This document shows, piece after piece, positions 37,723 through 64,000 of a stretch of DNA of 64,000 nt (positions are counted from its first letter, which is position 1; the number at the start of each line of letters is the position of its first letter). Where the stretch lies: assembly GCF_002775205.1 (NCBI RefSeq), contig NC_036445.1, positions 24,594,953 to 24,658,952 on the forward strand, given 5' to 3'. Below the pieces are notes generated by a model that was not told the origin of the DNA, did no database searches, and was given only the letters and a program-made list of their open reading frames with translations. The stretch comes from Xiphophorus maculatus. Its lineage: Eukaryota; Chordata; Actinopteri; Cyprinodontiformes; Poeciliidae. A program made the position numbers and the translations under genes.

Positions 37723-54577
<16,855 letters not shown>

Positions 54578-54739: not shown

Positions 54740-57024
54740 CTTTCCCTTTGTTGCGCGACAAAACGTTTGTTTGAACAGACTGCACTGTCGCTACTGACAA
54801 AGAAGCTTTTCTCCGTTTCTAGAAAATCCTTTTTTGCACTTTACTCAAAGCAAGACTGAATTACAAAGTATTTGTCGAGGATATGCCACCATTGTGTAAA
54901 GTTTGATATAAACGCATATTACTGGCATCACTGTTTAAAAACATTTACAGCACTGCAATGAAATACAGTTTGCAATGCAGAAGCATTAACTTCCACTGCC
55001 AATTTTGAAAAACATAACCTTTAATTAGAGTACATTTGAATCTTTGAAAATATGAAATGGATCATTCTGGAAACAACTGGGTCATTTTTGAATCTTTGAT
55101 TTCTATTTGCCTTTTTTGTCTTTTATCACATCCAACAATGACCCAATTTCAGTTTCATGTTGACCTTTGGCAAAGGAAATGACCCAGAGATCCTCCTCTG
55201 TACTTCAGACAGCATAAAGCCATATACTGTATATTCAATGCTACGGATACCAGGATGACTTTGTTTTTGTCTTGGCTTCCATCTGATCAAAGCACATAGT
55301 TCCAATGTAAGCCAGAGAAGAGTTTAGTAGATGTTTACGTTTGTGATGGTAACACAGAAAATAACTAAGCAATCAGCAGCAGCATCTAATGGCGGCTATG
55401 GAGATTTGACAACCTCAAGATGTCAATGTATTGAAATTTACCAAAAGTAACCTTTGATTATTTTTGTTTCAAATCTATTTTTACTGACCTGAGCAGAAAA
55501 CCACTTTTAAATTCCACTGTGGGTTTATCCAACTGCAATAAAAATTAGTTTTAAAAGCATCTTTACCAGGAGTGCCTGTACATAAAGCTGGTACTGTAGC
55601 ACACATTTCTGATAAAATGGCTAAGAAATAACTTAACAGCCACAAAAGGGGATCTATCATATCGGCTTAAAGTGTAAAAGATCAAACTGAAAACATGTCT
55701 GTAAAGTTTAGTAAGGGATATTTTCATTTATTTCTGCCAGGAATCAATGGTTGCATCAGGCAGTGTGACAGTATGAGTGATTCTAGTGAAAGTAGGTCAG
55801 CAGACTGGTGACCTATCTCTTTCTGGACGTGCTCAACGGAGACGATCTTAATGAAAAGCAAATATTCTCCACCTGGTCAGGTCACACAGAACAGTTCCTG
55901 TTGGCCCCTTGATCTTTGTCACATTTGATCAGGTATTGATCTAAATATGGATACTATCGATTGAGTCCAAGGTGAATATTGGTATCGGATGGACACTAGC
56001 ATGATGAAATCACTACTTTTGTTTAAAGTGCCTCTTCCATATGTTCTGCAAATTACTCGAGTATCCTCACAGAATTCATGTTGCAGGGATCAAAATACCA
56101 GATAGTTTTACTTATTTATTTCTGACCTTTGGAGTGTTTGCAGTCAAAATGTCTGCTGTCTTTCAAATACAATTTGTTTAATTATCCTATAAATGCAGTT
56201 TTGAAAAAAAAATCTTACTGCAGCTCGAAAATGTACACCTAAGGAAAGATGTATACCTCAAATCTCAAATATGAATATGGCTGAACATTAAGTATTGAAG
56301 GGAAATATGTGTTCCCATTTATATTGTATGCAAATTAAAGACTCGGTTATAATCAGGATATTAAGTTATTTCTGTCCTGCTACATTGTTGTCTACTAGTG
56401 TAGTTAGTTAATGAAAAAATATTTGCCTAAAGTCTCTAAGCACATAAAGATTTTATGCAAATCTTTATTTGCCTTAAATAAAAATCTTAGGCAAATAAAT
56501 GTCTTGATTTATTTGATCAAAATCATAATCAACAAACTGAAACCGAATCAAGTTATTCAGTTACTTAGATTTTTTTTATTTTTAAGTATTGGTATTGACG
56601 ATACTAGCCCTGTATTTGTATTGGATCAATACCAAAATGTACAGTATTACAAACTTCCACCTCCAAAACAGCTTCCCTGTTGAACTCCATATTCCCCCGC
56701 AGACTGGCGCTGCCACCACCATGTTCAACCACAGCACAGTGTAGCCAAAAAGTGGTTTCAACCAGATCAGACCATCTTCAAAGCATCAGAGACGAGGAGG
56801 CAGAATAGAAATGCATGCCACACTTTTCAGATTTCCATATTTGTAAACGCTTAAAACAGTTTTTTTTTTTCTTTCTCTCCTTCCACTGCACAACTATGGT
56901 GCACATTGTGTTGTTCCGTCACGCTAAATCTTTCTAAAACACCTAAGGTTCGGTTGCCAAAATGAGAAAAAGTTCAAGGGGTGTGAATACTTTTGCAAAG
57001 CACCGTATACTAACTATAGTGTAC

Positions 57025-60071: not shown

Positions 60072-63000
60072 ATGTCGAGCCGCCGGAAGTCCACCACGCC
60101 TTGCATGGTGCTGCCTTCGGACGTGGTGGAGCAGGAAGCCGTAGAGGAGAAGCCGGAGAGAACAAAGGAGGACGAGGCAGGGGATGAGGAGGAGGAGGAG
60201 GAGAGGAAGGGGAAGGAGGCGACGGAGGAGCTTGGTCAGGCGGTGGTAGTTGTTCCCACTCCACCGGACGCAGGTAAAGCCCTCACAGAACTGAGTGACT
60301 GTGGAACTTTGTTACTCAGATCTAGAGAATTAAGATACGAATGTGAACAGGGTAGAACACGTCAAAGTTAAGGCTTGTGGGCCAAATCCGGCCCGCCGTA
60401 GCTATTTTCTGTGGCCCTTTAGCTCAGGCGTTTTCAACCTGCGGGTCCAGAAATATCATGCGACTCTTAATAAGTTTGCTCAAAAATGCTATAAAATTGG
60501 TGTTTTAAAATGTAAAGTTAATTAAAAAAAAATACTACTGGTTTTCATGTAACAAATCCAAATAATTTTCAATAACGAAGGATATTCTCTTTTTAAAAAA
60601 GTAATTTTTTTTGTCGTTTGGCTGCCAAGTATGAGCTTTTTTTCTATTAAAAATTATACGTACTATTGAAAAATTGTGTTCACTCCTTTTGTGTGAAAAA
60701 AGTTTGAGAACTGTATTTTTAAACCTAAAATCATGAAAAATGCTTTTGTTTCGAGCCACTTTTTTTTATAACCTAAGCTAAATAGGCCCCAAATGAAAAT
60801 AAGTGCAGAACATTATTATCCCCCCCTGCAGATGAAGCCGGCGTCTACAGCGCCGATGACCTCAAAGTCGTCGGCTCCACGCCGAAATCCAGACCGAAAG
60901 ATTCGCCGGAGGGCCCGAGTTGTGATCAGACCGCGCAGGAGCCGCAGAGCGACTCGGCCGGGGCGGGAGGAGCGGACTCGGCCGCGGCTTCGGCCATCTC
61001 CCTGAGCAAGACCCCGATCATGAGGATGAAGACCAAGTCCGAACCCAAGAGGATCGCCGTTTCCCTCAAATCCACGGACGAAGGAGCGGGGGAGGGCGCG
61101 GGGGGAGGAGGAGGAGGAGACGGGGAGCTGGGAGGGGAGCAGGAGCCCATCGAAGCCCCGCTCGGACCAATGACGCCCGTGGAGAAGCTGCTGCACGACT
61201 CCATGAAGTTCGGAGGAGGGGGCCTGCTGGTCAGCCCACCGTCAGAGCAGCTGAGAAAATCTTCCATTTTAAACCCCACAATTCTGCCTGCTGGTCTGGC
61301 ACAGGTAGAGAAAACCTCAAAGATTTACTACTTCTTTATTTAAACATACAGCTTCAAATTTATCACTTCACGTCCACGCCTTTCTTTTTACCGGGATTTT
61401 TTTTTTTCTTGTGAAACCTTCTAGTGGAAGAGAAATGATACGTGGTGTTTAGGGCTGAAACGATGAATCGCGTTAATTGAGATTAATCAGTTATTGAAAT
61501 AATTGGCAACTAATTTAGTAATCGATTAATCGTTAGCTGGAGTATTCAGACTCAAAAATAGGCCATTTTGCTAAAAGACCAACAGATTTAATGTTGTAAT
61601 TAAGCTAAATCTGTTAAAAAATATACACATTTTGCATTTAAGATAAAAATGTACTTATATTTTACCCAAAACATTTTTATTTTTTTTTAGCTGCAGAAGC
61701 ATCCTTTGTTACAAATGATCAAGTGTACACTAAATGAATACCGTTATTGAATGGTAGGTAATGAAATATTTTTATTTAAAAAAGGAATTTAATTATTTAA
61801 ATCTGCAAAATGTGCAGATTTTTTAAAAATCCGGTTAATCAGTTAATTGTCAGAATAATCGATAGATTAACCGATTACTAAAATAATCGCTAGTTGCGGC
61901 TCTAAAATGAGTATTTTAGTATAAATACAGTGAGTATATGTGTTTTGTTTCACATCGGAACCGTTTCATGGAATCCTGATAAAATCCATCAAAGTTTGTG
62001 GCTGTAACATGACAAAATGTGGAAAAACTTGAAGGCCTGTGAATATTTGTGCAGTGCTCTGTTGTAGAACCTAAAAACCCACTTTGAGCTTTGGGAAAAG
62101 GACAGATAATTCACAGCTGATTCAGTGTCTTGTTCAGGGCCGATACCTTTTCCTCATACCTTTGATACTAAATAGCAAACATCGGCAAACATTTATTTGA
62201 TACTAAATAGCAAACATCGGCAGCAGCTGCTGTGTTTAACGGTTTTCGCCCTCTCTGTCGTCACGCCAGGTGCTTTCAGCGTTCCAGGCCCAGCAGAGTG
62301 CAGCAGCCGCAGCAGCGGCCGTCTCTCAGTCCCAGCTGCTGATTCCTCTGAGCAGCATCCCCTCCTACAGTGCAGCTATGGACTCCAACCCTCTTCTGAT
62401 CAACACTTACAGGAAGTTTCCTTACCCCTCCCTGGCAGAAATAAGCAGCCTGGCATCACAGACGCAGTTTACAGAAGAGCAGATCAAGGTAAAAGATCAC
62501 ATTGTTTTTCATAATCAAAAGTTGTTGTTTTTTTTCCTGTCTTGCTTGAGCTAGAGACACTCGATCTGTGCGCAGGTGTGGTTCTCGGCCCAGCGTCTGA
62601 AGCACGGCGTCAGCTGGACTCCAGAGGAAGTGGAGGAGGCCAGGAGGAAGCAGTTTAACGGGACCGTGCACACAGTGCCTCAGACCATCACCGTCATCCC
62701 CGCACACCAACTGTCCGCTGCGGCGAACGGCCTGCAGTCCATCCTGCAGACCTGTCAGATTGTGGGCCAACCTGGCCTTGTGTTTACACAGGTAGGCAAA
62801 GAAAGAAAAAATGTTCCGCATTTCAATGAGCGGAGATGCGGCTCTTTCAAGCTTGCTGTGTGAACATTGTCTCAGTCGGACTGAGCTTGAGCTTAAAAAA
62901 ACCAAATCTGGAACATACTTCGTGCCTTGATTCTTCCATGTGTGTTTGAGTGATCCTTTAAGCTCCCTTGGCAACCATTCAGCTGAGCAAAACGCCTGGG

Positions 63001-64000
63001 TGGACTGACTGCCTCCTTGGAGCTTCACTTTCCAAGTCTTCAAGCTTCCGCCTTCCAGAGTAGCCCTCCCCCACTCAGTTCCTTCAGACTAGCCAGCAGC
63101 AATTAGCATTTCCACCTAGTGGAACTGCACATCTCCTGCGCTCATCATACAAGCTACTTCTCAGTGAAATGGTAGTGAAAACGTTGCTAAAGGTTTAACA
63201 GAGAGGCCATTTTGTGATGACTTCCTGGATGTGGAGTTTCAGAATGAGCAGGAGCTTTTCAATAGACATATACATAGAACATTTTTATAACACAAGGTAA
63301 TGTAGTTATTTGATTTTGTTATAAAATGGCACTGTGCGGTAGAAAAACACATAATACTGCCCCTTTAGTACATGCTCCTTTCACAATTATGTCAAACTAC
63401 TTTTGGTGGTTTGTGACATTAAATCCTGCTAAAACGTCATGATGTTTGTTGTTGCAAAGTCATAAAACATGCATAAGAACCAGACACAGTGATCGCTGTA
63501 TGTGTTTACCACAGGTTGGTCCAGGTGGGAATCTTCCAGTGACTAGTCCAATCACGTTGACTGTGGCAGGTTTGCCCAGTCAGTCTCAGAGCTCCAGCAG
63601 AGTTTCCTGTCAGTCCACGCCGACAAACAGTGAGCTAAAACGGGCTACCACAGTCCAGCCTCCCTCTCTGTCTCCCCAGGTTGGGACACCTTTCACATCC
63701 GGATGTGCTTGCTGTTTTAGTAGCAAATTTAGGATTTTCACCATCTAATTACACTGATGTTTCTTAAACGTTGCACTAACTCCTTGTTTAGAGTTTACAT
63801 CATTTGCCTTTCTCCTGTTTGCTACCTTGTTGTGTAAAATGACCCGACAGGAACACCGTGTTGATGGCTAACTTTTTCCCCTCCCTCACCAAGGAGAACT
63901 CAGCCCTCAGTGCTGACTCGTTCAGCCTGAGACCTAAGAAATCCAAAGAGCAGCTGGCAGAGCTGAAAGCCAGCTACCTGAAGAACCACTTCGCCTCCGA
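60072..64000 (+). CDS. zhx1: Zinc fingers and homeoboxes protein 1, 5' part of coding region (partial, no zinc fingers)
   Basis: A nuclear homeodomain repressor family. Coding exons are 60072-60273, 60832-61304, 62270-62488, 62576-62791, 63515-63679 and 63894 to the window end. The 5' UTR continues back to the acceptor at 59969. Phases agree at all junctions, giving about 460 residues so far (human 873 in total). [14 protein letters not shown] is the family's N-terminal signature. SISKTPIMKM of human aligns to [12 protein letters not shown]. Homeodomain 1 runs from about residue 250 to 315 with [36 protein letters not shown] and [15 protein letters not shown] identify ZHX1 rather than ZHX2 or ZHX3. 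The last exon starts homeodomain 2 ([19 protein letters not shown]). The two C2H2 fingers that human has between the N-terminus and SKTPIM are absent. Exon 2 encodes an Asp/Ser/Gly-rich linker instead. Confidence 0.93.
60377..60720. mobile_element. Possible hAT-like fragment in the zhx1 intron
   Basis: The stretch gtgggccaaatccggcccgcc, then a tgtggccctttagctcagg-like piece and ttttcaacctgcgggtcc, resembles a common fish hAT-derived repeat. It fills part of the 558-bp intron where the zinc-finger exon would be expected. Boundaries are unclear. Confidence 0.4.
61451..61902 (+). mobile_element. TIR element, family 'GGGCTGAAACGATTAATCG', copy 5
   Basis: The best preserved left end: AGGGCTGAAACGATGAATCG. 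The right end is tagttgcggctct. It carries the caactaatttagtaatcgat and ggccattttgctaaaa boxes. 452 bp, in zhx1 intron 3, non-coding. Confidence 0.75.
62162..62222 (+). repeat. 35-bp tandem duplication
   Basis: The unit starting ttgatactaaatagcaaaca is present at 62162-62196 and again, 26 bp long, at 62197-62222. The shared bases are identical, so it is recent. It lies 48 bp before a zhx1 exon and could include a branch point. Confidence 0.9.
62860..63366. mobile_element. TIR element ending in CCCCTTTA, copy 2
   Basis: It shares inner segments with 24080-24476 in reverse order and orientation: tttgagtgatcctttaagctcccttgg and cagttccttcagactagcc. Both copies end with the same CCCCTTTA end, as expected for an element with inverted termini. 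In zhx1 intron 5. Confidence 0.55.

What the first reader, a model, noticed from the sequence alone, without database searches (positions are those of the whole stretch)
60072..61304. zhx1 lacks the family-defining C2H2 zinc-finger pair
The N-terminal exon, with the family signature [11 protein letters not shown], ends in phase 1 and joins in frame to an exon that leads into the SKTPIM motif. In human ZHX1, ZHX2 and ZHX3 two C2H2 fingers lie between these landmarks. Here only linker is encoded, and the 558-bp intron has no C-X2-C pattern in any frame that I could find. A zinc-finger exon flanked by phase-1 introns could be lost without a frameshift, which would explain the clean junction. The intron instead carries hAT-like debris. 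A homeobox-only ZHX1 would be a notable change of architecture; a local assembly collapse is the alternative.
Basis: partly seen in the sequence, partly recalled or inferred. Interest (0 to 1): 0.72.

Follow-up and report, generated by a model that had tools for sequence, protein, structure and literature searches.

The report
Fish zhx1 duplicate without zinc fingers
This fish carries two copies of the regulatory gene zhx1; the copy in this window has lost its pair of zinc fingers but kept its five homeodomains, while the second copy on another chromosome still has the fingers, so the two copies may have divided an ancestral protein between them.

Summary
Exon 1 (60072-60273, phase 1) joins exon 2 (60832-61304) with no C2H2 finger between them or in the 558-bp intron, and I found no ZHX-like finger elsewhere in the window. 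The gene continues past the window as an open 937-aa frame with five homeodomain matches and no match to Pfam's ZHX finger family. Searching the same 704-Mb genome with the human fingers gave five strong loci: two zhx2, two zhx3 and a second zhx1 on C13. That copy, 'zhx1b', is 973 aa and has both fingers. atad2-zhx1-zhx2 is doubled on C3 and C13, as expected after the teleost genome duplication; one duplicate lost its fingers. In zhx1b a phase-2 intron splits finger 2 and none precedes finger 1, so the proposed phase-1 finger exon is not supported. Assembly collapse is unlikely but untested. The window copy keeps human homeodomain residues more often than zhx1b (49 v 26 sites, p=0.011), hinting at domain partitioning. 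HOMEZ is the known finger-less precedent. No other fish was available, so the age of the loss is unknown.

The parts
60072..60273 (+). zhx1a coding exon 1: start codon, family signature [11 protein letters not shown] and an acidic linker; ends in phase 1 about where finger 1 would begin
   Evidence: aligned to zhx1b and human ZHX1
60274..60831 (+). intron 1 (558 bp, 34% GC) at the place of the missing finger module; no finger remnant found
60361..60725 (+). dispersed repeat inside intron 1, hAT-like by eye (edges approximate)
   Evidence: (matches between intron positions 80 and 452)
60832..61304 (+). zhx1a coding exon 2: linker and SKTPIM motif; its start does not resemble the fingers or their C-terminal extension beyond shuffles
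62270..62488 (+). zhx1a coding exon 3: first part of homeodomain 1 (to QIK|VWF)
62576..62791 (+). zhx1a coding exon 4: end of homeodomain 1 and the conserved region after it
63515..63679 (+). zhx1a coding exon 5: linker before homeodomain 2 (3' border set by hand, least certain)
63894..64000 (+). start of zhx1a coding exon 6 (homeodomains 2-5); continues to 65147 beyond the window, with exon 7 at 66279-66563 in continued numbering
44454..49969 (+). span of three atad2 exon pieces upstream of zhx1a; all three have a counterpart on C13

Best explanation
The window gene is zhx1a, one of two zhx1 copies left by the teleost genome duplication. It has truly lost the whole finger module (both C2H2 fingers and their C-terminal extension), by deletion of the coding DNA or, less likely, its decay beyond recognition, and survives as an intact homeobox-only gene. 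Its partner zhx1b on C13 keeps the fingers. Shown: absence of fingers, an open 937-aa frame with five homeodomain matches, presence and synteny of zhx1b, and more human homeodomain residues kept in zhx1a. Inferred: the two copies partly divided the ancestral protein by domain. zhx1a should still form dimers through homeodomain 1, bind NF-YA and repress through its acidic tail, but reach DNA or partners through homeodomains alone; it could thereby modulate the fingered Zhx1b, Zhx2 and Zhx3 proteins by forming heterodimers with one finger set missing.
For: zhx1a frame: 937 aa in 7 coding exons, borders set by hand, GT-AG at all six coding introns; five homeodomain stretches and no PF18387, against four stretches and PF18387 at 62.4 bits in zhx1b. 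Genome-wide finger search: ten matches at E<=1, five of them at E<=1.2e-4, one of these zhx1b; the other five at E>=0.19. atad2: 3 of 3 pieces match both the C3 and the C13 block upstream of zhx1; finger-bearing zhx2 lies about 80 kb and 110 kb downstream on C3 and C13. pN 0.14-0.24 against pS 0.63-0.92 in the five homeodomain regions of zhx1a v zhx1b (synonymous sites near saturation, so qualitative only). Residues: zhx1a keeps the human residue at 49 sites where zhx1b changed, the reverse at 26, sign test p=0.011. Intron 1 outside the repeat is about 185-215 bp, depending on the edges taken, short for the 252 bp of fingers plus extension (84 aa in 2GHF) with splice signals; simulated decayed fingers are found in 181-200 of 200 trials at up to 0.3 substitutions per site. 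Human ZHX1: dimerisation by HD1 (aa 272-432), acidic repressor region 831-873 (PMC9570228, passages); HD1 dimers and NF-YA binding (PMC2893186, passages).
Against: No transcript data: expression and splicing of zhx1a are inferred. No other fish was compared, so the loss could be specific to this species. Decay is not excluded for an old loss: simulated remnants are found in only 70-165 of 200 trials at 0.5 substitutions per site and 2-4 of 200 at 1.0, and the fingers alone (177 bp) would just fit the non-repeat part of the intron. The Pfam Homez model at homeodomain 5 scores zhx1b (55.1 bits) above zhx1a (32.8 bits). No functional test of partitioning exists here.
Confidence: 0.8

Rival explanations
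1. Assembly artefact: a finger exon in the true intron 1 is missing from this assembly.
For: Intron 1 is in phase 1, so a missing symmetric exon would leave no frameshift. The intron holds a dispersed repeat, a place where misassembly is possible.
Against: No N run in the window; 33.4-Mb contig. No spare zhx1-like finger sequence in the genome search. None of the other five zhx genes shows a finger exon bounded by phase-1 introns: zhx1b has a phase-2 intron inside finger 2, zhx2b, zhx3b and zhx3a have signature and fingers in one frame, zhx2a's finger exon has apparent phase-0 borders.
Confidence: 0.08
2. A more specific route to the same loss: an intron already sitting in finger 2, as in zhx1b, grew outward in zhx1a through shifted splice sites, so that both finger halves became intronic and were later deleted or decayed.
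For: zhx1a has an intron exactly in the gap and zhx1b has one inside finger 2. A single deletion across the whole module would have removed such an intron as well.
Against: Phases differ (1 v 2); none of the other intron positions is shared by the two genes; no finger or zhx1b sequence can be recognised in intron 1 (best DNA match 41 bp, 76% identity, E 0.013).
Confidence: 0.35
3. zhx1a is a decaying pseudogene and the finger loss is part of the decay.
For: Loss of a defining domain; the N-terminal region up to SKTPIM aligns poorly (32 of 127 identical to zhx1b).
Against: Open frame of 937 aa across seven exons; homeodomain blocks 72-80% identical to human (109/142, 45/56, 42/58, 52/67, 38/49).
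Confidence: 0.05
4. A fingered isoform exists through a distant alternative exon upstream or downstream of the window gene.
For: Alternative first exons are common in regulatory genes (general knowledge).
Against: No ZHX-like finger found in the 64-kb window or the 30 kb after it; the only C3 match at E<=1 in the finger search belongs to zhx2a on the opposite strand.
Confidence: 0.02

Closest known systems
[quoted passage not shown]
   Same: N-terminal signature, SKTPIM motif, five homeodomains, acidic tail, position beside atad2 and zhx2
   Different: no finger pair and no C-terminal finger extension; six coding introns, whereas the human coding region is, as I recall, one exon
zhx1b of the same genome (C13:10008521-10019133)
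   Same: same family and neighbours; 405 of 857 aligned residues identical
   Different: keeps both fingers; no intron position coincides in the alignment
HOMEZ
   Same: Zhx/Homez-family gene without fingers, described as most likely a secondary loss (PMC4901127, passages; grouped with ZHX1-3 by its homeodomains in PMC2211742, passages)
   Different: a separate gene, here a finger-less open frame on C6 whose best PDB match is Homez 2ECC; the window gene is zhx1 by sequence and synteny, so this would be a second, independent loss
Partitioning of domains between duplicates (subfunctionalisation)
   Same: one copy keeps the fingers, the other keeps more of the human homeodomain residues (inference)
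   Different: zhx1b keeps homeodomains too, only more changed, so the split is asymmetric

Membership tests
ZHX1 / Zhx family | two N-terminal C2H2 fingers (C-X2-C-X12-H-X4-H) | tested here: not met
ZHX1 / Zhx family | four or five homeodomains | tested here: met
   PF00046, five stretches, 133.1 bits
ZHX1 / Zhx family | signature [11 protein letters not shown] and SKTPIM motif (motifs recalled, then seen in zhx1b) | tested here: met
ZHX1 / Zhx family | conserved neighbours atad2 and zhx2, as in salmon and human (PMC2846915, passages) | tested here: met
ZHX1 / Zhx family | dimerisation through HD1, NF-YA binding, repression | not testable with these tools
   regions are conserved but function was not assayed
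HOMEZ | Zhx-type homeodomains without zinc fingers | tested here: met
   shared through loss, not proof of membership
HOMEZ | sequence orthology to homez | tested here: not met
   homez of this genome lies on C6; the window gene aligns with ZHX1 and zhx1b along its length outside the finger gap and has zhx1 neighbours
HOMEZ | leucine zippers | not tested
   not examined

The most novel reading that the evidence does not exclude
After the teleost genome duplication the two zhx1 copies split the ancestral protein by domain: zhx1a became a homeobox-only regulator, repeating independently what made HOMEZ, and acts as a natural finger-less dimer partner that tunes the fingered ZHX proteins. The loss is old and fixed in a large fish clade, and came with a burst of new introns in zhx1a, zhx1b, zhx2a and zhx3a.
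Probability: 0.3. Interest if true: 0.65.

Novelty: new variant of a known kind. Interest (0 to 1): 0.5.

Why it matters
What the ZHX fingers do, as against the homeodomains, is hard to separate. An intact-looking ZHX1 without fingers beside a fingered twin in the same genome is a ready-made experiment on which functions need the fingers, and a second case, after HOMEZ, of finger loss in this family. The pair also shows different intron positions throughout, which bears on how vertebrate genes gain or lose introns. I found no paper on these fish copies: 'zhx1a'/'zhx1b' gave one hit, a human pituitary EST study with a single mention, which I did not open; zhx1+zhx2+zhx3+teleost gave none; zhx1+zebrafish+orthologue gave only the salmon MHC paper; the listings (25 of 34 shown; 7 of 7) showed no title on it. 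These searches cover open-licence PMC papers only.

Tried and rejected
Rejected: a finger hidden in the intron (regex, tblastn, shuffles, decay simulation), finger DNA recognisable by alignment with zhx1b, an orphan finger exon elsewhere in the genome, and a homez identity for the window gene. Exon 2's start shows a faint likeness to the finger extension ([10 protein letters not shown] / TVNDLTFDGS), but 404 of 2000 shuffles do as well, so I claim no homology there. Relatives elsewhere: none confirmed in viral contigs; in genome contigs only a bacterial homeodomain. The tool for whole genomes states that this genome has no relatives there, so no tree of the loss was possible. Intron homology among the zhx genes was looked at but not settled.

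The genome search was often unanswered ('busy'; 23 calls). The exon-1 DNA request was answered as and the intron-1 request. The PF18387 genome search and the exon-4 protein search never ran, so the finger census rests alone.

Full report
What was checked. The finding concerns 60072-61304. Exon 1 (60072-60273) carries [13 protein letters not shown] and ends in phase 1; intron 1 is 558 bp (60274-60831); exon 2 (60832-61304) leads to [10 protein letters not shown]. No finger is encoded between them. The intron has no C-X2-C on either strand. A tblastn search with the human ZHX1 fingers scores it 14.6 bits, near the median of 500 shuffled introns (13.9; 95% level 17.7, 99% level 19.6). Two window-wide hits to finger 1, 19 residues each at 55108-55164 (25.0 bits) and 46821-46877 (23.5 bits), beat all 60 shuffles for finger 1 alone, although for the pair 2 and 4 of 60 shuffles reach those scores. 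The first lacks the second zinc-ligand histidine and meets a stop, the second contains a stop, and neither is among the genome-wide matches at E<=1. I treat both as chance.

The complete gene. The window is C3:24594953-24658952 of a genome of 704,300,149 bases in 101 contigs. Those figures are what I recall for a Xiphophorus assembly; that is recall, not a test. With 30 kb fetched downstream the coding region can be followed to its stop: seven coding exons and 937 aa, with GT-AG at all six coding introns. I set the borders by hand from the open frames; the border after exon 5 is the least certain. Pfam finds five homeodomain stretches and no ZHX finger model. Homeodomain regions are 72-80% identical to human ZHX1 (109/142, 45/56, 42/58, 52/67, 38/49). 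It does not look like a wreck.

The second zhx1. Searching the whole genome with the human fingers gave ten matches at E<=1, five of them strong (E<=1.2e-4): C3:24739323 (zhx2a), C13:10119106 (zhx2b), C13:10008755 (a second zhx1), C1:18022608 and C20:26227759 (the two zhx3); the other five had E>=0.19. The names zhx2 and zhx3 rest on recalled human sequences and on the comparison of the copies with each other; a and b are my labels. The C13 gene starts MASRRKSTIPCMV and has both fingers, the NFxxTMVKRNN extension, SKTPIM and the homeodomains: 973 aa in six coding exons, PF18387 62.4 bits. Three of three atad2 pieces from the window match the C13 block upstream of zhx1b, and zhx2 lies downstream of zhx1 in opposite orientation on both chromosomes. 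Salmon has ATAD2, ZHX1 and ZHX2 together in the orientation of human chromosome 8 (PMC2846915, passages). This double synteny fits the teleost genome duplication.

Against the proposed exon loss. In zhx1b finger 1 lies in the same exon as the signature, and finger 2 is split by an intron in phase 2. zhx2b and zhx3b hold signature, fingers and homeodomains in single open frames (1041 and 935 codons), and zhx3a holds signature and fingers in one frame. zhx2a does have an intron before its finger exon; its apparent acceptor is in phase 0 and the donor was not fixed. So none of the other five zhx genes here shows a finger exon between phase-1 introns. The lost piece matches the whole structured module: 2GHF covers the fingers and 25 residues beyond them, ending at NDLTF, and the start of exon 2 does not resemble that extension beyond shuffles (404 of 2000 as good).

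How the DNA went. Intron 1 contains a dispersed repeat: about 60361-60725 matches scattered copies (317 first-look candidates, 40 scored), the longest two matches at about 70% identity over 322 and 357 columns. The rest of the intron is about 185-215 bp, depending on the edges taken. That is short for the module's 252 bp with splice signals, though the fingers alone (177 bp) would just fit. A decayed finger copy would have been found in 181-200 of 200 simulations at up to 0.3 substitutions per site, but in only 70-165 of 200 at 0.5 and 2-4 of 200 at 1.0. So deletion is the likelier route, and decay beyond recognition after an old loss is not excluded. Why an intron now sits exactly in the gap is open: either an older intron in finger 2 lost its flanks, or a new intron arose at the join. 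The phases differ between zhx1a and zhx1b (1 v 2), so I lean slightly against simple inheritance.

How it most likely works. Human ZHX1 forms dimers through the homeodomain-1 region (272-432) and represses through an acidic region (831-873) (PMC9570228, passages); ZHX proteins bind NF-YA and dimerise through HD1 (PMC2893186, passages). zhx1a keeps these regions. It also keeps the human homeodomain residue more often than zhx1b does: 49 sites against 26, p=0.011, mainly in HD2 (9 v 1), HD4 (12 v 6) and HD5 (10 v 3); HD1 (14 v 12) and HD3 (4 v 4) show no difference. Against this, the Pfam Homez model scores zhx1b above zhx1a at homeodomain 5. The best reading is a partial division of labour: zhx1b keeps the fingers, zhx1a keeps a more ancestral homeodomain set and works as a finger-less repressor and dimer partner. 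The division is inferred; only the architecture is shown.

Known and new. Finger loss in this family has a precedent in HOMEZ, whose fingers 'most likely were lost secondarily' (PMC4901127, passages); PMC2211742 places HOMEZ with ZHX1-3 by its homeodomains (passages). The homez of this genome lies on C6: a finger-less open frame with three homeodomain stretches, the Pfam Homez model at 87.1 bits and Homez 2ECC as best PDB match. A finger-less zhx1 duplicate would be a second, separate loss. My literature searches found no description of it (open-licence papers only). I rate it a new variant of a known kind.

Limits. One genome only; no transcripts; no reads; no other fish at hand. The finger-family search of the genome (PF18387) did not complete, so the census rests. 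The human sequence outside the PDB-confirmed parts is recalled.

Noticed in passing
zhx1a (window 60072-64000 and L017) and zhx1b (L024, L025): The two zhx1 duplicates have six and five coding introns, none at the same alignment position, most of them in phase 0 between AG and G in the exon. zhx2b and zhx3b have single-frame coding regions while zhx2a and zhx3a are split. Either many introns were gained after the genome duplication or many were lost; intron gain in teleost mtnr1b paralogs is reported (PMC7541902, start of abstract in a search listing).
   Followed up: partly
L025 (zhx1b) and L028/L029 (zhx2a): zhx1b and zhx2a share one intron position, phase 0, at SW(T/S)PEE|VEEAR in homeodomain 1; it may be ancient or a parallel gain at the same proto-splice site. 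This counts against the view that all these introns arose separately after the duplication.
   Followed up: no
window 60361-60725: Dispersed repeat in intron 1, hAT-like by eye, with a short core (intron positions about 88-149) matched by most of the 40 scored places in the genome.
   Followed up: partly
L001:9428-10474: A 348-aa open frame with a clear homeodomain (PF00046, 61.9 bits) in a 92-kb contig of an Endozoicomonas genome; a gene taken from an animal host is one possible source.
   Followed up: partly
G000:C14:10453466-10453648: A further zhx/homez-like homeodomain in a 466-codon open frame, perhaps a second homez copy.
   Followed up: no
window 55108-55164 and 46821-46877: Two 19-residue likenesses to ZHX1 finger 1 outside the gene, one without the last histidine and followed by a stop, one with a stop inside; taken as chance.
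   Followed up: yes
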